A DNA stretch of 64,000 nucleotides from Oscillospiraceae bacterium (lineage in GTDB: Bacteria > Bacillota > Clostridia > Oscillospirales > Oscillospiraceae), in NCBI GenBank assembly GCA_902790375.1, contig CADARY010000018.1:1-64000 (forward strand), given 5' to 3'. Shown here piece by piece: positions 10,631 to 25,955 of the stretch. Position numbers and translations under genes: made by a program. The notes under the pieces were generated by a model that saw nothing but the letters and a program-made list of their open reading frames with translations, did no database searches and had not been told where the DNA came from. Numbering within the stretch: the stretch's first letter is position 1; each line of letters starts with the position of its first letter.

Positions 10631-12427
10631 TTAATCCTCCCAGCCCTGCATGCGGTCGAGGATTTCGTCGATGGGCAGGTACGGGTCTGTGTGCATCTCC
10701 TGCGTGACGCCGAGGAACATGAGATTTGTCCCGTCCGTGCTCCGCTCCCAGCGCGGCAGGCCCTCGCCGTTGGGGTCGCCCGTGCGGATGAAGTTCACAA
10801 AGTAGTCGCTGAAAAGATCGGCGAGCTGGCGGTCCGCCTCGTCATAGAGCTTCGAGTCCGCCGGGATGTTGTTGTAGCAGTAGACCTCTTCCCCGCTGTG
10901 CCAGGCCGAGAGGCGGCCGTTTTCCTTGGCGAAGAAGTACTCCCACACCGGCTCCCCGGCCCGGATCGCCTGACGGCTCAGGCAATAGTGCCCGTGGGTG
11001 AAGTAGACGCCGGAATAGAGCTGCATCCACATGGTTCTGGCCTGCTCGTCCGTTGTCGGCGCATAGAGGGAGAGCACCTCGTCGGCATATTCCCTGAAAT
11101 AGCCGCGTAACTTGCCCTCGTAGTTTTTCAGGTTCGCCTGCTCGAAGAGGATGAAGGGCGTCCCCTCCTCCGCGTTGAAGCCGTGGAGCACGGCCTCCTC
11201 GTTATGTTCGCCCGCCTTGTACGCCTCATAGGGGGTCCGGGTCAGGACATAGCCGTCGACCGTGATGTGGTGGTTTGTGTCCGCAGCCTCCACGAGCTTT
11301 TCCGCGGGCAGGGCGCGCAGCTCGGCGATGTTCTCCGCGCCGAAGCGCGCCATGGTCTCCCGCCCGGTCTGAAGCGCCTCGTCCATCAGGCGGAAGGAGT
11401 GCTGCGGCACGGGGGCCGTGGTGGTGGAGCTCTCGGCAATGGCCCTCCTGAACAGTCCCTTCGCCGCCGGAGAGGTGCAAAGCGCCGTCACGCACGCAGC
11501 GCCTGCGGATTCGCCCGTGAGGGTCACGTTCTCCGGATCTCCGCCGAAGGCGGCAATATTGTCGCGCACCCACTCCAGGGCCTTGATCTGATCCATAAGC
11601 CCGTAGTTGCCGGTGCTGCCGTGGGGATCCTCCGCCATGAGCTCCTCTGCGGCGAGAAAGCCGAACACCCCAAGCCGATAGCCGAAGTTCACGACAATGA
11701 CGCCCTTGCGGGCAAGGCCCTCCCCGCTGTAGTCGGCATACCAGGGCTGGCCGGTCTGCAGAGAGCCGCCGTGGATATACACCAGCACCGGCAGCTTCTC
11801 CCCGGCCTCCGCCGGTCTCCAGAGGTTCAGATAGAGCGAGTCCTCGCTCACCGCGTCACGGAAATTGTCGTGCAGGCTCAGCTCATAGTCGTGAAAGCCC
11901 ACGATCCGGGACAGGGAGTTATAGATCTCGGAATTGCGCGGCTGCATGGACATGGGCGCAAACTGCACGCAGGTGCGCACACCGCTCCAGGGCTCCGGGT
12001 CCTCCGGCGCCCGCCATCGCAGCTCTCCCACCGGGGGCTTGGCATAGGGGATGCCGGTGAAGACCTCCACCGCCCCGTCCGCCGTCTTGACGCCCTGCAC
12101 CTTGCCGTCGCGCAGGGAAAGCGTCTCGGTCATGCCGCCGCTTTTTTCCACCGCCGGGCGGCGCTTATAGGGGCGCCCGACGCCCCACATCGCCTGGCTG
12201 AGCAGCGCGAGCAGGGCAAGCAGCGCCGCAAGGCGCAGATATAAATGCCTGCCGCGCAGAAAGCGCTGCCGCAGGAAGGCATAGAGCCCCAGCAGCGCAA
12301 GGCACACCGCCCACGCCGCGAGGTTATTCTTGTTCAGCTCCAGGATCGTGAGCGTTGTGAGCGTCAGCAGCGCAAAGAAGATCCAGAAAAACAAATCCTG
12401 CGTTTTGGCTTTTGCCGTTCGGTTCAT
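10631..12427 (-). CDS. carboxylesterase type B (para-nitrobenzyl esterase-like), membrane-anchored
   Basis: An alpha/beta-hydrolase of 598 residues. The esterase domain starts near residue 100, with GIPYAKPPVGELRWRAPE, the oxyanion-hole HGGSLQTG and the nucleophile elbow GESAGA. About 95 residues at the N-terminus hold three hydrophobic segments, an unusual addition that should anchor the enzyme in the membrane with the catalytic domain probably outside. Substrate unknown; pNB esterases accept many esters. It has no operon partner. A TATAAT box lies about 20 bp upstream of the start, without a clear -35. Confidence 0.88.
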   Translation of the reverse strand: MNRTAKAKTQDLFFWIFFALLTLTTLTILELNKNNLAAWAVCLALLGLYAFLRQRFLRGRHLYLRLAALLALLALLSQAMWGVGRPYKRRPAVEKSGGMTETLSLRDGKVQGVKTADGAVEVFTGIPYAKPPVGELRWRAPEDPEPWSGVRTCVQFAPMSMQPRNSEIYNSLSRIVGFHDYELSLHDNFRDAVSEDSLYLNLWRPAEAGEKLPVLVYIHGGSLQTGQPWYADYSGEGLARKGVIVVNFGYRLGVFGFLAAEELMAEDPHGSTGNYGLMDQIKALEWVRDNIAAFGGDPENVTLTGESAGAACVTALCTSPAAKGLFRRAIAESSTTTAPVPQHSFRLMDEALQTGRETMARFGAENIAELRALPAEKLVEAADTNHHITVDGYVLTRTPYEAYKAGEHNEEAVLHGFNAEEGTPFILFEQANLKNYEGKLRGYFREYADEVLSLYAPTTDEQARTMWMQLYSGVYFTHGHYCLSRQAIRAGEPVWEYFFAKENGRLSAWHSGEEVYCYNNIPADSKLYDEADRQLADLFSDYFVNFIRTGDPNGEGLPRWERSTDGTNLMFLGVTQEMHTDPYLPIDEILDRMQGWED

Positions 12428-12490
12428 ACTATCCCGCCTTGCATTATATCGTTATCCTATTCATACCCCCGCGCCGTGCCTTTGTCAAGC

Positions 12491-12536
12491 AGAAGAAAAG
12501 CCGCCCGCCGGATCTCCGGTGAGCGGCTGCTCTTCT
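12491..12536 (-). terminator. intrinsic terminator of fakA
   Basis: On the minus strand a long interrupted stem (AGAAGA-GCCGC-CCGG / CCGG-GCGGC-TCTTCT) directly follows the fakA stop, with a T-rich 3' arm. Confidence 0.65.
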
Positions 12537-12538
12537 CT

Positions 12539-14236
12539 TTATTCCACGCTGATCATGTAGTAGTACACCGGCTGTCCGCCGTTGACCACGCTCAGCTCCG
12601 CCTGGGGGAAGCTGCCCGTCAGCACTGCGGCCACGCCGTCGGCGCTGGCTTCGTCCACGCCCTCGCCGTAATAAATGGTGATGAACTCCGGGGAATACTG
12701 GCCGAAGGCCCCCTTCAGCTCCTCCAGCAGCGCATCCTCGCTCTTGAAGCTGCCGAGCAGCGCCCCGTCCAGCAGGGCCAGATACTCGCCGGCATGGATG
12801 TCGTGCCCGTCAAAGTCGGAATCCCGGGCCGCATAGGTCACCATTGCGGTGTGGACCCTGGCGGCCGCCTCCTTCATGGCCTCGACAATGGGCTCCTCAT
12901 TTTCGTCGATATTGAAGTTCAAAAGTGCCGAGATGCCCTGGGGCACGGTTTTGGTGGGGATCACGATGACCCGCTTGTCTCTGCACAGCTCCGCGCTCTG
13001 CTCGGCGGCCATGATGATGTTCTTGTTGTTCGGCAGGACGAAGACCGTCTCCGCCGGGGTGCGGTTGATCTCCCGCAGGATATCGTCGGTGGAGGGGTTC
13101 ATGGTCTGCCCGCCGGTGACCACGCGGTCGGCGCCAAGCTCGCGGAAGAGGTTCTGCATGCCCGCGCCCGCGGCCACGACCACCGCGCCGAACTGCTTTT
13201 CGGGAGCGGCAAGCTCCGGCTCCTCCTCCATGGCCTCCAGCTCCTGCCCGACCTTCTCGAGATCGTCGGTGCTGATGACGGCCACGCCGGCCTTCTGCTG
13301 CTCGGCCTGGATGACCATGTTTTCGATCTTGGCAAGCTCCAGCGTGCCGTATTTCTGGCTCTCGGTCAGCACTGCGCCCGGGGTGTCGGTGTGGACGTGG
13401 ACCTTGAAGATCTCATCGTCCTCGCTGATGACCAGGCTGTCGCCGACGCTGCCCAGATAGCTGCGCAGGGGCGTGAGATCCACATTGGGGTCGTTCTTGC
13501 GCACGATGTAGACCGTGTCGAAGGCGAAGGTGATCACATCCTGCACGCCGTCCTTCTCGAACACGCGCCCGCTCTCCTGCACGACCTCCTCGATGCGCAT
13601 CTGGTCCCGGGGTGCAAAGACCTCCCCGCGCAGGGAGGAGAGCATGGCCTTGAGTATGACCATGTAGCCCATGCCGCCCGCGTCCACGACGCCGGCCTTT
13701 TTGAGCACGGGATTGAGATTGATGGTGTCGGCCAGGGCCTCATCCCCGGCGGCAATGGCGGCCTCCATGGTCGCCTCCATACCGGCGCCGCTCTCGGCCG
13801 CCCGGACGGCAGCCTCGGAGGCCAGGCGCGACACGGTGAGGATCGTACCCTCGGCCGGCTTCATGACGGCCTTGTAAGCGGCGTTGACGCCCTCCTGCAT
13901 GGCGGCGGCAAAGCTCTTGGGGTCGGCCTCATGCAGGCCCTTGAGTTTTTTGGAGATCCCGCGAAACAGCAGGCTCAGAATGACGCCGGAGTTGCCGCGG
14001 GCTCCCCGCAGCAGGGCGGAGGCCACACAGTCGGCCGCGGCGGTGATGGTGGGAAAATCGTTCTTTCTCAGCTCGGCGGCAGCCTTTTCCATGGTCAGGC
14101 CCATATTGGTGCCGGTGTCGCCGTCGGGAACGGGAAAGACGTTCAGATCGTTGATGGTCTGGATGTTGGCTTGCAGCGCGGCGTATGCACACAGGATGCA
14201 TTCCTTGAAGGCCGCGGCATTTATCATATCTCTCAA
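12539..14236 (-). CDS. fakA: DAK2-domain protein YloV/FakA (fatty acid kinase catalytic subunit)
   Basis: A 565-residue cytoplasmic ATP-dependent kinase. In characterised Firmicutes it phosphorylates fatty acids bound to FakB, feeding them into phospholipid synthesis. The N-terminal DAK2 nucleotide domain has DLNVFPVPDGDTGTNMG near residues 29-45 and RGARGNSGVILS; the C-terminal half is the FakA-specific region. The start is TTG at 14236 with GAGAGG 9 bases upstream; ATG 14227 is an alternative. It follows yloU by 21 bp, the classic yloU-yloV pair. No fakB gene is in the window. Confidence 0.93.
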   Translation of the reverse strand: MRDMINAAAFKECILCAYAALQANIQTINDLNVFPVPDGDTGTNMGLTMEKAAAELRKNDFPTITAAADCVASALLRGARGNSGVILSLLFRGISKKLKGLHEADPKSFAAAMQEGVNAAYKAVMKPAEGTILTVSRLASEAAVRAAESGAGMEATMEAAIAAGDEALADTINLNPVLKKAGVVDAGGMGYMVILKAMLSSLRGEVFAPRDQMRIEEVVQESGRVFEKDGVQDVITFAFDTVYIVRKNDPNVDLTPLRSYLGSVGDSLVISEDDEIFKVHVHTDTPGAVLTESQKYGTLELAKIENMVIQAEQQKAGVAVISTDDLEKVGQELEAMEEEPELAAPEKQFGAVVVAAGAGMQNLFRELGADRVVTGGQTMNPSTDDILREINRTPAETVFVLPNNKNIIMAAEQSAELCRDKRVIVIPTKTVPQGISALLNFNIDENEEPIVEAMKEAAARVHTAMVTYAARDSDFDGHDIHAGEYLALLDGALLGSFKSEDALLEELKGAFGQYSPEFITIYYGEGVDEASADGVAAVLTGSFPQAELSVVNGGQPVYYYMISVE

Positions 14237-18849: not shown

Positions 18850-18904
18850 TTTATAGATGATATGATTCCCGATTCCCGTCACTACAATCAGGGAGGACTC
18901 CGCC

Positions 18905-20659
18905 ATGAAACACAACCTGGAAAAAAAGTTCAGCTCCTTTGACCTGATCCTGGTTCTGGTGCTGATTGCCGTACTGCTGATCAACATTTTCGTGATCGGC
19001 AATCTCCGCGGCCCCGGTGAACGCAAGGCCTCCAAGGACGCCGTCACCGTGACCGGCAGCGCCCCCGGCAAGGTCGGGGACGTGACCGTTGAGGTCGTGG
19101 CCGACGCGAACAACATCTATTCCGTCACCGTGACCGGGCAGAACGAGACCCCGGGCATCGGCTCGCTCGCGGTTGAACAGCTCCCCGCCGCCATAGGCAA
19201 GGCCAACTCCCTTGACGTGGACAGCGTCTCCACCGCCACCGTGACGAGCGACGCCATCAAGGCCGCTGTCGCCGCCGCCCTGGAGAGCGCCGGCTTTGAC
19301 CCGGCAAGCTTCGGCTACACGGCTCCGGCTCCCGAGCCCGCAGCTGAGGCTGCCGTCGCGGAGACCGCAGCGCCTGTGGTTCAGGAGGACGGCAAGGTCA
19401 CCGCCACCGGCAAGGGCGCCGGCATCGACGGCGACGTGCTCGTTGAGGTCGTCGCCGACGCGAACACCATCTATGAGGTCAACATTCTCCAGCAGAACGA
19501 GACCCCGGGCATCGGCTCGGTCGCGGTAGAAAAGCTCCCCGCCGCCATCGTGGAGGCAAACTCCATCTCGGTCGACGGCATCACCGGCGCAACGGTGACC
19601 AGCACCGCCATCAAGACCGCCGTCACCGAGGCCCTCACCGCCGCCGGCTTTGATCCGGCGAACTTCGGCGCCGGCGCGGAGGCCGCCCCTGAGGCCGCCC
19701 CCGCCGAAGAGCCTGCGCCTGCAGAGGAAGCCGCCACCGCTCAGGAAGCAGCGCCTGTTGAGATCCCTGCCGACGCTGTCACCGTGACCGGCAAGGGCGC
19801 CGGCATCGGCGGCGACGTGGTGGTCGAGGTCGTGACCGACGGCGCCAACATCTACGCCGTCACTGTCCTTGAGCAGAACGAGACCCCGGGCATCGGCTCG
19901 GTCGCTGCTGAAAAGCTCCCCGCCGCGATTGTCGCGGCCAACTCCGTCGAGGTTGACGCCATCACCGGCGCGACCGTGACAAGCACGGCCATCAAGACCG
20001 CCGTCACCGAGGCGCTGGCAAGCCTCAATGCCGCGCCTGCCGAAGAAGCCGCTCCCGCCGAAGAGCCTGCCGCGGCAGCTCCCGCCGGAGAGAAGACCTA
20101 CAGCGGCTCCGCCGCGCTGCAGGCCAAGGTGGACGGCAGGAACGGCCCGATGATCGTCGAGGTCATTGTGAAGGACGGCGTTATCACCAGGGTGGATGTC
20201 CTTGAGCACAGCGAGACCCAGGGCGTCGGCTCCGTCGCCGTTGACTGGATGCCGGGCCGCATCGTCGAGGCGAACTCCCCCGACGTGGACGGCGTGACCG
20301 GCGCCACCATCACCTCCGACGCCATCAAGGCCGCTGTCCGCCAGGCCCTGGAGCTTGCGGAAAACGGCCTGCCCGCAGCGGAAGCCGCGGCCCCCGCTGA
20401 GGCTGTCGCCGTGCGGGCCACCGCCGACGGCAGAAACGGCCCCATCACCGTGGAGGTCACCACCGACGGAAAGAACATCACTGACGTGAAGGTGCTGGAG
20501 AGCAGCGAGACCCAGGGCGTCGGCTCCGTCGCTGTCGAGTGGCTGCCCGGGCGCATCGTCGAGGCAAACTCCGTCGACATTGACGGAATTACCGGCGCGA
20601 CCGTCACCTCCGACGCCATCAAGGCCGCCGTCACCGAGGCCATGGGCAAGGCCTCCTGA
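18905..20659 (+). CDS. membrane-anchored protein with five FMN-binding domain repeats
   Basis: A 584-residue protein with one transmembrane helix (about residues 13-35) and five FMN-binding domains of 80-100 residues joined by Ala/Pro/Glu-rich linkers. In this family FMN is attached to the Thr of a D-x-x-T-G-A-T-x-T-S motif by the flavin transferase ApbE, outside the membrane. Motifs lie near residues 106 (degenerate, DSVSTATVTS), 224, 351, 462 and 560. So four sites look competent and the first does not. The last two domains form a subclass (DGRNGP, ETQGVGSVAV). The helix has no cleavage site, so the protein probably stays tethered and relays electrons between membrane and a secreted reductase. 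Start ATG follows GGGAGG. Confidence 0.85.
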   Translation: MKHNLEKKFSSFDLILVLVLIAVLLINIFVIGNLRGPGERKASKDAVTVTGSAPGKVGDVTVEVVADANNIYSVTVTGQNETPGIGSLAVEQLPAAIGKANSLDVDSVSTATVTSDAIKAAVAAALESAGFDPASFGYTAPAPEPAAEAAVAETAAPVVQEDGKVTATGKGAGIDGDVLVEVVADANTIYEVNILQQNETPGIGSVAVEKLPAAIVEANSISVDGITGATVTSTAIKTAVTEALTAAGFDPANFGAGAEAAPEAAPAEEPAPAEEAATAQEAAPVEIPADAVTVTGKGAGIGGDVVVEVVTDGANIYAVTVLEQNETPGIGSVAAEKLPAAIVAANSVEVDAITGATVTSTAIKTAVTEALASLNAAPAEEAAPAEEPAAAAPAGEKTYSGSAALQAKVDGRNGPMIVEVIVKDGVITRVDVLEHSETQGVGSVAVDWMPGRIVEANSPDVDGVTGATITSDAIKAAVRQALELAENGLPAAEAAAPAEAVAVRATADGRNGPITVEVTTDGKNITDVKVLESSETQGVGSVAVEWLPGRIVEANSVDIDGITGATVTSDAIKAAVTEAMGKAS

Positions 20660-20685
20660 GCGGGACAGCTGAATATAGCATTTGA

Positions 20686-20720
20686 TTTCCGGCAGTCATA
20701 ACAACTGCCGGAAATTTTTT
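20686..20720 (+). terminator. intrinsic terminator after the FMN-repeat gene
   Basis: 11-bp stem TTTCCGGCAGT / ACTGCCGGAAA, 7-base loop, then TTTTTT. Confidence 0.9.
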
Positions 20721-20755
20721 CGGGAATTTTTTGAACAGTTTGACAGCATTCTCAA

Positions 20756-20784
20756 TTGACGATGAAAGGTGGAGATGATATACT
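20756..20784 (+). promoter_or_regulatory. sigma-A promoter of the double flavoprotein reductase
   Basis: TTGACG, 17 bp, TATACT. The leader of about 90 nt contains two small hairpins (CGCTGACC/GGTTAGCG and TAAGCT/AGCTTA), the second just before the AGGAGG site. Confidence 0.85.
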
Positions 20785-20879
20785 TTTCACAGAATGCCCG
20801 GAGGCGCTGACCTCGCCTTCGGTTAGCGGACAATCCTATTTATATTAAGCTTCGGGAGGAGCTTAAAAGGAGGAAGACT

Positions 20880-23800
20880 ATGAAGAAGACACTGTCCCTG
20901 CTTTTGGCCCTGATGATGCTTCTGTCCCTCGCGGTTCCCGTTTACGCGGATGACGCGCAGACCGCCCAGGGCAAGGGCACCGGCATCGACGGCGAAGTCG
21001 TCGTCGAGGTCAAGGCCGACGCGAACACCATCTATGAAGTGAATGTAATCCAGCAGAACGAGACCCCGGGCATCGGCTCCGTCGCGGTCGAGAAGCTGCC
21101 CGGCGCGATCGTCGCGGCAAACTCCCTCGAGGTCGACGGCATCACCGGCGCAACGGTGACCAGCACCGCCATCAAGGCTGCCGTCACCGAGGCCTTGACC
21201 GCCATGGGCTTTGATCCCGCAGGCTATCAGGGCGCTGCCACAGCAGCCGCTCCCGCGGGCGGCGACGCGCAGACCGCCCAGGGCAAGGGCACTGGCATCG
21301 ACGGCGAAGTCGTCGTCGAGGTCAAGGCCGACGCGAACACCATCTATGAAGTGAATGTGCTCCAGCAGAACGAGACCCCGGGCATCGGCTCCGTCGCGGT
21401 TGAGAAGCTGCCCGGCGCGATCGTCGCGGCAAACTCCCTCGAGGTCGACGGCATCACCGGCGCAACGGTGACCAGCACCGCCATCAAGGCTGCCGTCACT
21501 GAGGCCCTGACCGCCATGGGCTTTGATCCGGCGAGCTATCAGGGCGCTGCCGCCTCTGAGGGCGGCGCCGGCGCGAAGACCGAGGAGACCCTTGACTGCG
21601 ACGTGGTCGTGGTCGGCGCGGGCGGCGCGGGCCTGACCGCCGCCATCACCGCCTCCGATGAGGGCGCGAACGTCATCATCCTTGAGAGCACCAGCTTCCC
21701 CGGCGGCAACTCTGTCCGCTCCACCGGCGGTATGAACGCCGGCCCCACCGAGTGGCGCAACATGAACGAGTTCGGCGAAGCCGCGGGCGTTGAGGCCACC
21801 CTCAAGAAGGTCGCCAACTTCCCCGATAACGCGCGCATTCAGGAGCTGGGCAAGATCGTTGAAGAGCAGTGGGCCGCCTACCAGGCCGATCCCCAGGGCT
21901 ACTTTGATACCTCTGAGCTCTTCCAGCTCGATACCCTTATCGGCGGCGGCGGTATGAACGATCCCGCCCTGGTCAAGAAGCTCGTCGAGTCCAGCCCCGC
22001 CGCCATTGACTGGCTCGATTCCCTCGATCCTGAGATCATCCTGCACGACGTGGCTGCATTCGGCGGCGCGTCCGTCAAGCGCATCCACCGCCCGGTGGAC
22101 GAAAACGGCAAGTCCCTCTCCGTCGGCGCGTACGTCGTTCCCCTGCTCCAGGAGAACCTTGAAAAGCGCGGCATCAAACTCCTGACCGACACCCCCGCCA
22201 CCGAGATCCTGATGGATAACGGCACGGCTGTCGGCGTGAAGGCCGAGAGCGCAGATACCTCCTACACCATTAACGCCAAGGCGGTAGTCATCGCCTCCGG
22301 CGGCTTCGGCGCGAACAACGACATGATCAAGGCTGTCCGCCCCGAGCTTGACGGCTTCATCACCACCAACGCTCCCGGCATCCAGGGCCAGGGCATCCAG
22401 ATGGCCCAGGCCGTCGGTGCCGACACCGTCGATATGGAGCAGATCCAGCTCCACCCGACCGTCCATGTGGAAGGCACCAGCGCAAACCTCATCACCGAGG
22501 GTCTGCGCGGCGACGGCGCCATCCTGGTCAACCAGGAAGGCGAGCGCTTCTTCGACGAAGTCTCCACCCGCGACAAGGTCTCCGCTGCCGAGTTTGAGCA
22601 GACCGGCGGCTATGCCTGGCTCATCATCGACAGCCGCATGTATGACAAGTCCAACGTCATCCAGGGCTATGTCAAGAAGGGTTTTGCCGAGACCGGCGAC
22701 ACCTACGTCGCCCTGGCTGATGCCATCGGTGCTCCCGCTGAGGCGCTTGTCAACACCTTGATCAATTGGAACGCGTGCGTGGAGCAGAAGTCCGATCCCG
22801 AGTTCGGCCGCGTTTCCTTCGCCAATCCCCTTGATCAGGCTCCCTTCTACGCCATCAAGGTTCAGCCCGGTGTCCACCACACCATGGGCGGTATCAAGAT
22901 CAACGACAACGCGCAGGTCATCGACACCGAAGGCAATGTGATCCCCGCCCTCTTCGCAGCGGGCGAAGTCACCGGCGGCGTGCACGGCAACAACCGTCTG
23001 GGCGGCAACGCTGTGGCCGACTTCACCATCTTCGGCCGCATCGCCGGCCAGAGCGCGAGCGCCTTCGCCGCGGCAGCCAACGAGACCGTCCTTGACTGCG
23101 ACGTGGTCGTCATCGGCGCGGGCGGCGCGGGCATGACCGCTGCCATCACCGCCTCCGACGCGGGCAGGAACGTCATCGTCCTCGAGAGCACCAGCTTCCC
23201 CGGCGGCAACTCCGTGCGCTCCACCGGCGGCATGAACGCCGGTCCCACCGAATGGCGCAACCAGAATGAGTTCAAGGAGGGCGCAGGCGTTGAGGCCACC
23301 CTCAAGAAGGTCGCCAATTACCCTGACAATGCCCGCATCCAGGAGCTGGGCAAGATCGTCGAGGAGCAGTGGGCCGCCTACCAGGCCAATCCCGAGGGCT
23401 ACTTCGACACCGCCGAGCTCTTCCAGCTCGATACCCTCATCGGCGGCGGCGGAATGAACGACCCCGCCCTCGTGAAGAAGCTCGTGGAATCCAGCGCCGA
23501 CGCCATCGCCTGGCTTGACTCCCTCGATCCCGAGATCGTGCTGCATAACGTCGCCGCCTTCGGCGGCGCCTCCGTCAAGCGCATCCACCGTCCCGTGGAC
23601 GCAGACGGCAAGGTCGTCTCCGTCGGCGCCTACGTCGTTCCTCTGCTCCAGGAGAACCTGGAAAAGCGCGGCATCACCCTTATGACCGACACCCCCGCTA
23701 CCGAGATCCTCACCGATAACGGCGCTGTCGTCGGCGTGAAGGCCAAGAGCGCGGACCATACCTACACCATCAATGCAAACGCTGTCGTCATCGCCTCCGG

Positions 23801-24596
23801 CGGCTTCGGCGCGAACAACGACATGATCGCCTCCATCCGCCCCGAGCTTGACGGCTTCATCACCACCAACGCCCCCGGCATCCAGGGCCAGGGCATCCAG
23901 ATGGCCCAGGCCATCGGCGCGGACACGGTCGACATGGAGCAGATCCAGCTTCACCCGACCGTCCATGTGGAAGGCACCAGCGCAAACCTCATCACCGAGG
24001 GTCTGCGCGGCGACGGCGCGATCCTGGTCAACCAGGAGGGCAAGCGTTTCTTTGACGAAGTTTCCACCCGCGACAAGGTCTCCGCTGCCGAGTTTGAGCA
24101 GACCGGCGGCTACGCCTGGCTGATCGTTGACAGCCGCATGTCCGAGGCCTCCAACGTCATCCAGGGCTATATCAAGAAGGGCTTTGCCGAGACCGGCGAC
24201 AGCTATGAAGCGCTGGCCGAGGCCATCGGCGCCCCCGCCGACGCCCTTGTTGAAACCATGAACGCCTGGAACGCCTGCGTGGAAGCCAAGTCCGATCCCG
24301 ATTTCAACCGTGTCTCCTTCGCCAACCCCCTCGATCAGGCTCCCTTCTACGCCATCAAGGTGCAGCCCGGTATCCACCACACCATGGGCGGCATCAGGAT
24401 CAACGACAACGCTGAGGTCATCAGCACCGACGGCAGTGTGATCCCCGGCCTCTTCGCAGCGGGCGAGGTCACCGGCGGCGTACACGGCAACAACCGCCTG
24501 GGCGGCAACGCCGTGGCCGACTTCACCATCTTCGGCCGCATCGCCGGTCAGGCTGCCGCGGACTACCAGGCCGCAGCCCTTGATCAGGCCGCGTAA
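20880..24596 (+). CDS. secreted flavoprotein reductase: two FMN-binding domains plus two tandem fumarate-reductase-type FAD domains
   Basis: A 1238-residue exported protein: signal peptide (cleavage after PVYA, residue 23), FMN-binding domains with VDGITGATVTS motifs at about residues 85 and 189 (104 residues apart), then two FAD_binding_2 (flavocytochrome c/soluble fumarate reductase) units of 499 residues each, from about residues 236 and 735. Each has the dinucleotide motif GAGGAG, QLHPTV, LITEGLRGDGAILVN, TRDKVS (Arg564 and 1063, matching the proton-donor Arg of fumarate reductase), HHTMGG and GNNRLGGNA. Both active sites therefore look intact. Relatives reduce fumarate, urocanate or other enoates with electrons passed through FMN; one FAD unit is the norm. 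Substrate unknown. Confidence 0.88.
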   Translation: MKKTLSLLLALMMLLSLAVPVYADDAQTAQGKGTGIDGEVVVEVKADANTIYEVNVIQQNETPGIGSVAVEKLPGAIVAANSLEVDGITGATVTSTAIKAAVTEALTAMGFDPAGYQGAATAAAPAGGDAQTAQGKGTGIDGEVVVEVKADANTIYEVNVLQQNETPGIGSVAVEKLPGAIVAANSLEVDGITGATVTSTAIKAAVTEALTAMGFDPASYQGAAASEGGAGAKTEETLDCDVVVVGAGGAGLTAAITASDEGANVIILESTSFPGGNSVRSTGGMNAGPTEWRNMNEFGEAAGVEATLKKVANFPDNARIQELGKIVEEQWAAYQADPQGYFDTSELFQLDTLIGGGGMNDPALVKKLVESSPAAIDWLDSLDPEIILHDVAAFGGASVKRIHRPVDENGKSLSVGAYVVPLLQENLEKRGIKLLTDTPATEILMDNGTAVGVKAESADTSYTINAKAVVIASGGFGANNDMIKAVRPELDGFITTNAPGIQGQGIQMAQAVGADTVDMEQIQLHPTVHVEGTSANLITEGLRGDGAILVNQEGERFFDEVSTRDKVSAAEFEQTGGYAWLIIDSRMYDKSNVIQGYVKKGFAETGDTYVALADAIGAPAEALVNTLINWNACVEQKSDPEFGRVSFANPLDQAPFYAIKVQPGVHHTMGGIKINDNAQVIDTEGNVIPALFAAGEVTGGVHGNNRLGGNAVADFTIFGRIAGQSASAFAAAANETVLDCDVVVIGAGGAGMTAAITASDAGRNVIVLESTSFPGGNSVRSTGGMNAGPTEWRNQNEFKEGAGVEATLKKVANYPDNARIQELGKIVEEQWAAYQANPEGYFDTAELFQLDTLIGGGGMNDPALVKKLVESSADAIAWLDSLDPEIVLHNVAAFGGASVKRIHRPVDADGKVVSVGAYVVPLLQENLEKRGITLMTDTPATEILTDNGAVVGVKAKSADHTYTINANAVVIASGGFGANNDMIASIRPELDGFITTNAPGIQGQGIQMAQAIGADTVDMEQIQLHPTVHVEGTSANLITEGLRGDGAILVNQEGKRFFDEVSTRDKVSAAEFEQTGGYAWLIVDSRMSEASNVIQGYIKKGFAETGDSYEALAEAIGAPADALVETMNAWNACVEAKSDPDFNRVSFANPLDQAPFYAIKVQPGIHHTMGGIRINDNAEVISTDGSVIPGLFAAGEVTGGVHGNNRLGGNAVADFTIFGRIAGQAAADYQAAALDQAA

Positions 24597-24652
24597 AGCC
24601 CCGGGCAGCTCTCCTTTCAGGGGCAGCATTGCCTGAAAAGAATTTGCATCTT

Positions 24653-24695
24653 TTCCCCCTTTTTGCACACCCTAATGCAAAAAGGGGGAATTTTC
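24653..24695 (+). terminator. 15-bp hairpin that is both terminator and cover for the ypeB ribosome-binding site
   Basis: A perfect stem (24653-24667 with 24676-24690; TTCCCCCTTTTTGCA on the left) followed by TTTTC. Its right arm contains the AAAAAGGGGG that serves as the ribosome-binding site of the gene starting at 24696, so folding would both end upstream transcription and hide that site. Confidence 0.75.
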
Positions 24696-25955
24696 ATGTC
24701 CATAAAGCTGAAACGTCTGCTTGTGATCTATACCGCCGCCGCGCTGATCGCCCTGTCCGGCTACGCCTTTGCCGCATCAGAGCAGCTCCGGCGCGTGCGC
24801 CTTACGGCGGGCTATGAGTCCGCCCGGGCCTTTGAGGCGGCGGTGAGCGCGGCGGAGGATCTGAGCGCGGTCTTCAAAAAGCTCCGCTTCGCCACGGACG
24901 ACGCCCTGGGCAAGGCCCTCTGCGCCCGCGCTCTGGCCGACGCCCAGTCGGCGGAGACAGCCCTTTCGATCCTGCCCTTTGAGACGCAGGAGCTTGAAAA
25001 GCTGCAGGGCTTTCTGGGCCGCGCCGGAGACTATGCCGGGAGTCTCTGCGCCCTGACGGACCGGAGCCTGCCCGCTGAGCACCGGGAGCACCTGCTGGCC
25101 TTCGGAGAGGCGGCGGCGGATTTTGCCGAGCATCTGCGGCAGGCGCAGGGGAAGCTGCATGAGGGCAGCATTCAGATGGACACGCTGGAGAAGCCGGTGC
25201 GCAACGTGACGGACGGGGACACGCAGCTCCTCTCCGCCCTCCTTCTGGGCTATGAGAGCAGCTTTGCCGCCCCGGAGGAATTTCAGTACGAAGGCCGCTA
25301 CAGCCCCGCGGCGGCCCCGACAGCGGGCAGTCTCAAGGAGGAGGAGGCCCTCGCCGTCGCGGCGAAGGCCGTCGGGGTGGAGCCCCGGGAGCTGCGGGAG
25401 GAATACAGCTACGAAGGGCCGGAAGGCCGACGCTGCTACAGCGCGGGCGGAACGCTGCTGGGGGTGAGCAGCCGTGGCCTGGAGTTCATGGGGCAGTCCC
25501 GCCTCGTAAGCCGGGCGGAGCTTAGCAGGGACGAGGCGCAGAAGCGGGCGGAGGATTTTCTTGCGCGCATGGGCTATACGGAGCTGCAGCTCTATGCGTC
25601 CGGCGGCAGCGAGACCATCGCCGTCTTCCGCTACGCGCCGCAGCAGGACGGCGTCATGCGGCCGGATGACGCGCTCAGCCTCTCCATTGCCCTGGATGAC
25701 GGGAGCGTCTACGCCCTGGACGCCACGAAATACAGCCCCTGGGTTGTGGATGTGAGCTGGAACACGGATGAGCAGGAGGCCCTTGCCACCCTGCCGGAGG
25801 GCGCGGAGCCCGGCGAGGCGCGGCGGCTGATCCTCAAAACCCTCAGTGGGGCCTATCTCCCCTGCTGGGAGCTCACATGCACAGACGAAGCCGGCGAGAG
25901 CGCCCGGATCTACGTGGACGCCGGGACAGGGAGACAGTACAGGGTCGAGATATAG
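24696..25955 (+). CDS. ypeB: germination protein YpeB-like
   Basis: A 419-residue protein with an N-terminal membrane anchor (LLVIYTAAALIALSGYAFA), a helical N-terminal domain and C-terminal PepSY-type repeats (about residues 215-419). YpeB is needed for localisation and stability of the cortex-lytic enzyme SleB in spores. Usually it is adjacent to sleB; here it is not, but a SleB-like gene lies at 47028. ATG 24696 follows AAAGGGGGAATTTTC; the longer frame from 24663 starts inside the upstream hairpin and is not used. Confidence 0.85.
   Translation: MSIKLKRLLVIYTAAALIALSGYAFAASEQLRRVRLTAGYESARAFEAAVSAAEDLSAVFKKLRFATDDALGKALCARALADAQSAETALSILPFETQELEKLQGFLGRAGDYAGSLCALTDRSLPAEHREHLLAFGEAAADFAEHLRQAQGKLHEGSIQMDTLEKPVRNVTDGDTQLLSALLLGYESSFAAPEEFQYEGRYSPAAAPTAGSLKEEEALAVAAKAVGVEPRELREEYSYEGPEGRRCYSAGGTLLGVSSRGLEFMGQSRLVSRAELSRDEAQKRAEDFLARMGYTELQLYASGGSETIAVFRYAPQQDGVMRPDDALSLSIALDDGSVYALDATKYSPWVVDVSWNTDEQEALATLPEGAEPGEARRLILKTLSGAYLPCWELTCTDEAGESARIYVDAGTGRQYRVEI

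What the first reader, a model, noticed from the sequence alone, without database searches (positions are those of the whole stretch)
20880..24596. One polypeptide with two complete fumarate-reductase-type FAD units in tandem
The second FAD unit starts exactly 1497 bp (499 codons) after the first, and the two are nearly identical, including all catalytic motifs (HPT, TRDKVS, HHTMGG, NRLGGNA). FMN-binding/FAD reductases of this class normally carry one FAD unit. This looks like a recent in-frame duplication, and the protein also has two near-identical FMN-binding domains 312 bp apart. An obligate two-active-site extracellular reductase would be new; an alternative is divergence of substrate between the two halves.
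Basis: partly seen in the sequence, partly recalled or inferred. Interest (0 to 1): 0.85.

Follow-up and report, generated by a model that had tools for sequence, protein, structure and literature searches.

The report
Two-headed fumarate-type reductase with swappable head
A bacterium related to rumen bacteria codes for a predicted secreted enzyme with two almost identical fumarate-reductase-like heads on one chain; such multi-head enzymes were already reported, but here the first head seems to have been exchanged between related species as a ready-made unit.

Summary
ORF 20880-24596 (+, 1238 aa) has a signal-peptide-like start, two FMN-binding domains with intact flavinylation motifs, and two complete FAD units, 427/487 residues identical without gaps. 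The period is 1500 bp, not 1497. All catalytic residues of Shewanella fumarate reductase that I checked are kept in both halves and the pocket loop is identical, so different substrates for the two halves are unlikely.

"Recent in-frame duplication" is not supported: the halves differ at silent sites (dS 0.37) as much as FAD units of different species, and the two halves as sisters are rejected. [quoted passage not shown]

What looks new is the mode of change. At one conserved locus the number and type of FMN and FAD units vary between species, and FAD unit 1 is far more alike between three genomes (dS 0.017-0.035) than FAD unit 2 or the neighbouring genes tested, with edges near the domain borders. 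I read this as exchange of a domain-sized catalytic cassette. Of the 10 two-FAD frames only the window's joins FAD to FAD directly. The genomes are draft assemblies; substrate and activity are untested.

The parts
20880..24596 (+). 1238-aa reductase: signal-peptide-like start, FMN, FMN, FAD1, FAD2
20880..20948 (+). signal-peptide-like N-terminus (residues 1-23, ends ...AVPVYA)
   Evidence: read by eye from the translation; no signal-peptide program was run
20982..21197 (+). FMN_bind domain 1, flavinylation motif DGITGAT at residues 86-92
21294..21509 (+). FMN_bind domain 2, flavinylation motif DGITGAT at residues 190-196
21591..23054 (+). FAD unit 1 (residues 238-725)
   Evidence: borders set by me from the repeat alignment
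23091..24554 (+). FAD unit 2 (residues 738-1225)
21634..23052 (+). tract of FAD unit 1 with only 8 differences from G083 and, in its 3' part, 99% identity to G091; presumed exchanged cassette
23055..23090 (+). short link from FAD1 directly to FAD2; G083 has a linker plus an FMN domain here
18905..20659 (+). 584-aa protein with N-terminal hydrophobic anchor (by eye) and five FMN_bind domains (4 of 5 with the exact flavinylation motif); likely electron donor
   Evidence: role inferred
20684..20716 (+). hairpin leading into a run of six U (two of them in the stem) after the FMN-array gene, terminator-like
   Evidence: picked by eye, folded (-19.6 kcal/mol, z -5.47); the pattern scan did not list it; G083 keeps a like hairpin (by eye)
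20756..20784 (+). sigma-70-like site TTGACG-17-TATACT with TG before the second hexamer, upstream of the reductase
   Evidence: 3 such sites found, 0.7 expected; also in G083 (by eye)
24653..24690 (+). 15-bp-stem terminator-like hairpin after the reductase
   Evidence: 5 terminator-like sites found, 4.7 expected; -25.8 kcal/mol, z -6.64

Best explanation
The protein is a secreted, covalently flavinylated reductase of the FMN/FAD flavocytochrome-c type with two complete catalytic heads of the same predicted substrate type (fumarate or a close unsaturated dicarboxylate). Inferred electron path: the RNF complex or another membrane donor, then the neighbouring membrane-anchored five-FMN protein, then the two N-terminal FMN domains, then either FAD, then the substrate as electron sink. 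Two like heads would raise capacity per FMN input rather than widen the substrate range. The architecture comes from a locus (pta-tadA-flavin genes-ypeB) whose FMN and FAD units are repeatedly duplicated, lost, fused and exchanged; the first head was acquired or replaced as a domain-sized cassette by recombination between related species. Shown: domains, intact residues, synteny, silent-site mosaicism. Inferred: secretion, flavinylation, electron path, substrate, recombination as the cause.
Against: The three genomes with the near-identical FAD1 are draft assemblies (G083 is the metagenome bin RUG10684); G091's contig ends inside FAD1, so only its 3' edge is seen, and G091 is listed at 7% contamination. 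The protein AU test does not reject FAD1+FAD2 of window and G083 as one clade (p 0.135); the DNA test, with G091's FAD1 added, does (p 0.0075). dN/dS of FAD1 between window and G091 is 0.41, on few changes, so selection on FAD1 is less clear there. No ApbE (PF02424) was found in the 88.57% complete own assembly, though 94 of 102 genus genomes including G083 have one. RnfB was not identified and the RnfG-like protein is below its cut-off. A hairpin and a promoter-like site between the FMN-array gene and the reductase suggest separate transcripts. The model has pTM 0.54, so it does not say how the heads and the FMN domain are placed, and FAD1 was not itself covered by most of the listed structure matches. 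No activity or expression data.
Confidence: 0.6

Rival explanations
1. Recent in-frame tandem duplication within this species.
For: 88% protein identity, ungapped, exact 1500-bp period.
Against: dS between halves 0.368; G083 has both halves, each 98% identical in protein to its counterpart in the window, and window FAD1+FAD2 as sisters are rejected, p 6.5e-39.
Confidence: 0.03
2. Older duplication in the common ancestor of window and G083, later divergence, then spread of FAD1 to G091; no outside origin for FAD1.
For: Protein AU test does not reject FAD1+FAD2 of window and G083 as one clade, p 0.135; dS 0.37 fits an old duplication.
Against: DNA AU test p 0.0075 against it, with G091's FAD1 added; FAD1 groups with G037/G092 genes at 97/95 (protein) and 99/99 (DNA); FAD1 dS between window and G083 is over four times lower than FAD2's, so at least one later transfer or conversion is still needed.
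Confidence: 0.25
3. Assembly or binning artefact: strain mixing made the tandem or the shared FAD1.
For: Draft assemblies; exact repeats of 98 and 68 bp inside the gene; contigs of G091, G073, G099 and G081 end inside FAD units.
Against: Two-FAD frames in contigs of differently named series (RUG, RGIG); the window's FAD1-FAD2 linker has no good copy in the held stretch of G083; the G091 junction shares only about 20 bp with both sides; 18,560 aligned bases collinear with G083 on both sides of the gene.
Confidence: 0.1
4. The two halves have diverged to different substrates (dual-specificity enzyme).
For: 51 fixed differences between FAD1 and FAD2 in window and G083. In L017/L018 the first head is a clearly different type (49% identity to window FAD1, T377S, no loop insert), so dual specificity is plausible there.
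Against: In the window 15 of 16 pocket and catalytic positions checked are identical, and the 16th is V/I.
Confidence: 0.12

Closest known systems
[quoted passage not shown] passages and the whole of section 18 read; figures not seen)
   Same: FMN-binding domains and more than one fumarate-reductase-like domain, in multi-flavinylated clusters
   Different: The text read gives no unit order, no near-identical pair and no exchange of units between species; its wording could also mean clusters with several such proteins
Flavinylated extracytosolic reductases: Listeria FrdA, Shewanella UrdA (PMC8238504 and PMC7921117, passages read)
   Same: FMN_bind domain linked to a fumarate-reductase-like FAD unit, extracytosolic
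   Different: One FAD unit there (partly recalled), two here
Shewanella flavocytochrome c3 fumarate reductase (PDB 1qjd, 1p2e)
   Different: Haem domain there (PMC8238504, passages, for the S. oneidensis enzyme), FMN domains here; M375 to L, M236 to F, two-residue insert in the pocket loop
Multi-flavinylated proteins SaFMN3 and CbFMN4 (PMC10339131, abstract and section list read)
   Same: Arrays of covalent FMN domains, like the 584-aa neighbour
   Different: No FAD reductase unit is mentioned in the abstract

Membership tests
Flavocytochrome c / FAD_binding_2 reductases (TIGR01813, PF00890) | Score above the curated cut-off | tested here: met
   878.7 vs 285.45 bits; 551.3 vs 20.4 bits, whole protein
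Fumarate reductase, Fcc3 type | H365, T377, E378, R381, R402, H504, R544 kept (list partly recalled, partly from PMC7921117) | tested here: met
   Both halves
Fumarate reductase, Fcc3 type | Fumarate reduction activity | not testable with these tools
   Needs protein; M375L, M236F and a loop insert leave the exact substrate open
Urocanate reductase (UrdA) | Tyr at the Fcc3 H365 position (Tyr373 in UrdA) | tested here: not met
   His in both halves (PMC7921117 passages)
ApbE-flavinylated proteins | Motif D-x-x-[ST]-G-A-[ST] in an FMN_bind domain | tested here: met
   DGITGAT twice; motif from PMC12052999
ApbE-flavinylated proteins | An ApbE flavin transferase in the genome | tested here: inconclusive
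   0 in the own 88.57% complete assembly; 94 of 102 genus genomes, G083 included
Multi-flavinylated proteins | More than one FMN-binding domain | tested here: met
   Two domains
Multi-flavinylated proteins | Extracytosolic location | not tested
   Signal-peptide-like N-terminus by eye only
[quoted passage not shown]

The most novel reading that the evidence does not exclude
The pta-tadA-ypeB locus of this genus is a natural exchange site for respiratory enzyme heads: repeated FMN domains and conserved linkers act as recombination handles, and whole FAD heads move between species as cassettes, so that the set of terminal reductases changes by domain exchange rather than by gain of genes.
Probability: 0.4. 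Interest if true: 0.7.

Novelty: new variant of a known kind. Interest (0 to 1): 0.48.

Why it matters
If true, a single extracellular respiratory enzyme can be reshaped by exchanging complete catalytic units between species, comparable to module exchange in peptide and polyketide synthases (recalled comparison). It makes a testable system: close relatives carry one head, two like heads, or two unlike heads at the same locus, so the effect of head number and type on use of fumarate-like electron acceptors could be measured directly. The finding as first stated (a double-FAD enzyme as such) is of modest interest because the class is already in print.

Tried and rejected
Recent duplication: rejected by dS and AU tests. 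Urocanate reductase: His, not Tyr, at the diagnostic position. Substrate divergence of the halves: pocket identical. An operon of the FMN-array gene with the reductase: a hairpin and a promoter-like site lie between them, so probably separate transcripts; the scan found 5 terminator-like sites where 4.7 are expected by chance and did not list the hairpin at 20684. Plasmid collection: 845 records matched, all below 60% identity; the 20 listed matches were places of about 1.6 kb, the size of one FAD gene; the other 825 were not looked at. Family-wide search: 17 of 300 genomes matched at E <= 1e-80, 15 of them outside the genus, all 15 with frames of 609-807 aa, too short for two FAD units (the tool scored 5 candidates a genome). 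A first script compared the two halves with the wrong offset and printed meaningless codon identities (end); not used. The tree has very long branches for a few distant rows; conclusions rest on the smaller trees, for which I chose 24 of 98 and 14 FAD units. A typed DNA pattern for the FAD1 region matched none of 211 loci; uninformative. The FAD1 core was chosen after seeing the data; that comparison left out 18901-21550 (FMN-array gene and FMN domains) and unaligned gaps. The count of 10 two-FAD genomes is a lower bound: one search looked only at loci in hand; 3 of the 10 (G091, G073, G099) are cut by a contig end, the second FAD unit of G079 is incomplete in its frame, and the G069 contig is probably misbinned. 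The structure model (residues 128-1238, 37-row alignment, mean pLDDT 80.0, pTM 0.54) did not settle how electrons reach FAD2. The listed structure matches mostly cover model residues 604-1110, that is FAD2, so FAD1 and FMN2 were barely tested there. The Foldseek search proper was not run.
Full report
OBSERVATION. The frame 20880-24596 on the + strand codes for 1238 residues. It starts with a signal-peptide-like stretch (by eye), then two FMN_bind domains and two FAD units. NCBIfam calls it flavocytochrome c (TIGR01813, 878.7 bits, cut-off 285.45). I set the FAD units at residues 238-725 and 738-1225; 427 of 487 aligned residues are identical, without a gap. The FMN repeat at 312 bp is 97% identical over 288 nt. 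Both FMN domains carry DGITGAT, which fits the published motif D-x-x-[ST]-G-A-[ST] (PMC12052999, passages).

SURROUNDINGS. Upstream lies a 584-aa protein with a hydrophobic N-terminal anchor (by eye) and five FMN_bind domains; 4 of 5 carry the exact motif, the first reads DSVSTAT. Between the two genes are a hairpin leading into six U (20684-20716, picked by eye, z -5.47) and a promoter-like site (20756-20784); after the reductase there is a second hairpin (24653-24690, z -6.64). The pattern scan as a whole found 3 promoter-like sites (0.7 expected) and 5 terminator-like sites (4.7 expected), so mainly the folding results and the like layout in G083 (by eye) speak for them. The reductase is probably its own transcript. 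The own genome (G000, 3.1 Mb, 95 contigs, 88.57% complete) has rnfA, C, D and E and an RnfG-like gene below its cut-off on contig 22; rnfB was not identified. No ApbE was found in it, but 94 of 102 genomes of the genus, including the closest relative G083, have one, so I take its absence as a gap in the assembly; this is not shown.

CATALYTIC RESIDUES. On an alignment with Fcc3 (Fcc3 residues copied), H365, T377, E378, R381, R402, H504, H505, R544 and G547 are present in both halves. The histidine at 365 argues against urocanate reductase, which has tyrosine there (PMC7921117, passages). The pocket loop is identical in both window halves and differs from Fcc3 by M375 to L, some other changes and a two-residue insert; M236 is F. 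Of 16 positions checked only 503 differs between halves (V/I). dN/dS between window and G083 is 0.128 and 0.067, as for genes under purifying selection; between window and G091 it is 0.41 for FAD1, on few changes. So both heads look active and of one substrate type, fumarate or a near relative; this is a prediction.

HOW COMMON. Among 75 loci from genome contigs, 6 have two FAD units in one frame: L016, L017, L018, L019, L024, L059. In the genus, 38 of 102 genomes match a 538-residue query holding FAD unit 2 at E <= 1e-100, and at least 10 of 102 have a two-FAD frame: G000, G083 (L016), G054 (L017), G069 (L018), G015 (L019), G079 (L024), G033 (L059), and, cut by a contig end, G091, G073, G099 (contigs equated by length). 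In G079 the second unit is incomplete in its frame, and the G069 contig is probably misbinned (its pta is 97% identical in DNA to that of G091, while another pta and the atpI of G069 are only 80% and 58% like the window's in protein). In 9 of the 10 at least one FMN domain lies between the FAD units; only the window has them directly joined. In 300 genomes of the family 17 matched at E <= 1e-80; the 15 outside the genus have frames of 609-807 aa, room for one FAD unit.

NOT A RECENT DUPLICATION. dS between the two halves of the window is 0.368; between the window's FAD units and those of genomes other than G083 it is 0.294-0.429, G091's FAD1 against the window's FAD1 excepted. G083 has both halves, each nearest its counterpart in the window. 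Window FAD1 and FAD2 as sisters: AU p 6.5e-39. FAD1 and FAD2 of window and G083 as one clade: p 0.135 on protein, p 0.0075 on DNA with G091's FAD1 added. In both trees FAD1 groups with the single-FAD genes of G037 and G092.

A CHANGING LOCUS. In window, L013, L014 and L016 the flavin genes stand between pta-tadA and ypeB-atpG-atpI; in L017, L018, L025 and L096 the pta-tadA side is the same. Between these borders the content varies: FMN array plus FMN-FAD (L014); FMN array plus FMN-FAD-FMN-FAD with like heads (L016) or unlike heads, the first only 49% identical (L017, L018); an FMN-FAD-FMN type gene with an unlike head and a separate FMN-FAD gene (L013, some 3.4 kb apart; L025, cut by the contig end); one FMN-FAD gene with no FMN array seen (L096); FMN array plus FMN-FMN-FAD-FAD (window). 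Against L016 the window has one more FMN domain in front and lacks the one between the FADs.

A DOMAIN-SIZED MOSAIC. Between window and G083, dS is 0.035 in FAD1 but 0.162 in FAD2 and 0.086-0.204 in five neighbouring genes. Over 18,560 aligned bases between 12538 and 34635 (18901-21550 and unaligned gaps left out) there are 775 differences; the FAD1 core (21672-23051, chosen) has 8 in 1380. Of all 1380-base stretches (step 30) that start outside 20400-22900 the lowest has 33; the median of all is 54 (Fisher p 4.8e-17 for the core against the rest, positions treated as independent). The low tract runs from 21634 to 23052, against a domain of 21591-23054. G091 shares it: dS 0.017 over the 261 codons held, against 0.395 in FAD2, 0.325 in pta and 0.253 in 143 codons of atpI. 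In G091 the sequence switches at the end of FAD1 from G083-like to L018-like; 20 bases at the switch match both. L018 and G091 are near relatives (pta 97% over 438 bases; FAD2 dS 0.108) but L018 has the unlike head in first place. A DNA search over 102 genomes found the FAD1 stretch at 99% only in G083 and G091 besides the window; other long matches reach at most 90%, and one 113-base piece at a contig end of G027 is 96%. I read this as recent exchange of the first head between species, with edges near the domain borders. Limits: draft assemblies, three genomes, one of them (G091) seen on one side only.

MECHANISM, INFERRED. Electrons from ferredoxin or NADH through RNF or another membrane donor pass to the membrane-anchored FMN array, to the FMN domains of the reductase and to either FAD, reducing a fumarate-like acceptor outside the cytoplasm. 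The RNF link, secretion and flavinylation are not shown here. The second head has no FMN domain directly in front of it, so it must be served by a flexible FMN domain, by the neighbouring array, or through the first head; the model is not good enough to choose.

LITERATURE. PMC8238504 (section 18 read in full, other passages; [quoted passage not shown] Nine searches of the held library, judged by their listings (in only 20 of 23 and 10 of 63 papers were listed), showed no other paper on tandem or exchanged heads of this kind; the library lacks most subscription journals. So the class is known in outline; the like-headed direct tandem and the silent-site mosaic were not found in print in those searches.

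Noticed in passing
L188:4066-5649 (G000 contig 41, about 11065-12648): A 527-aa protein with an FMN_bind match in its N-terminal part and, from residue 152 on, a match to ammonia-forming cytochrome c nitrite reductase (NF008339, 4.4e-65, 220 bits, below its cut-off of 595); it stands next to a 668-aa FMN/FAD reductase. An FMN_bind-NrfA-like fusion.
   Followed up: partly
own genome G000: No ApbE (PF02424) found although the genome has 12 FMN_bind matches; 8 of 102 genus genomes lack a match, among them G054, listed at 93% complete.
   Followed up: partly
window 18905-20659: The first of five FMN_bind domains has DSVSTAT instead of the flavinylation motif; the separate FMN-array gene has five to seven domains in window, L014, L016, L017 and L018.
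   Followed up: no
window 24663-25955: The ypeB-like gene is called from TTG inside the hairpin 24653-24690; the ATG at 24696 is a more likely start.
   Followed up: no
window 20823-24668, - strand: A 1281-aa frame is open antisense to the whole reductase, most likely a by-product of GC-rich codon use.
   Followed up: no
L018 (G069 contig 134): Contig probably binned into the wrong genome: its pta is 97% identical in DNA to G091's, unlike the other pta and atpI of G069.
   Followed up: partly
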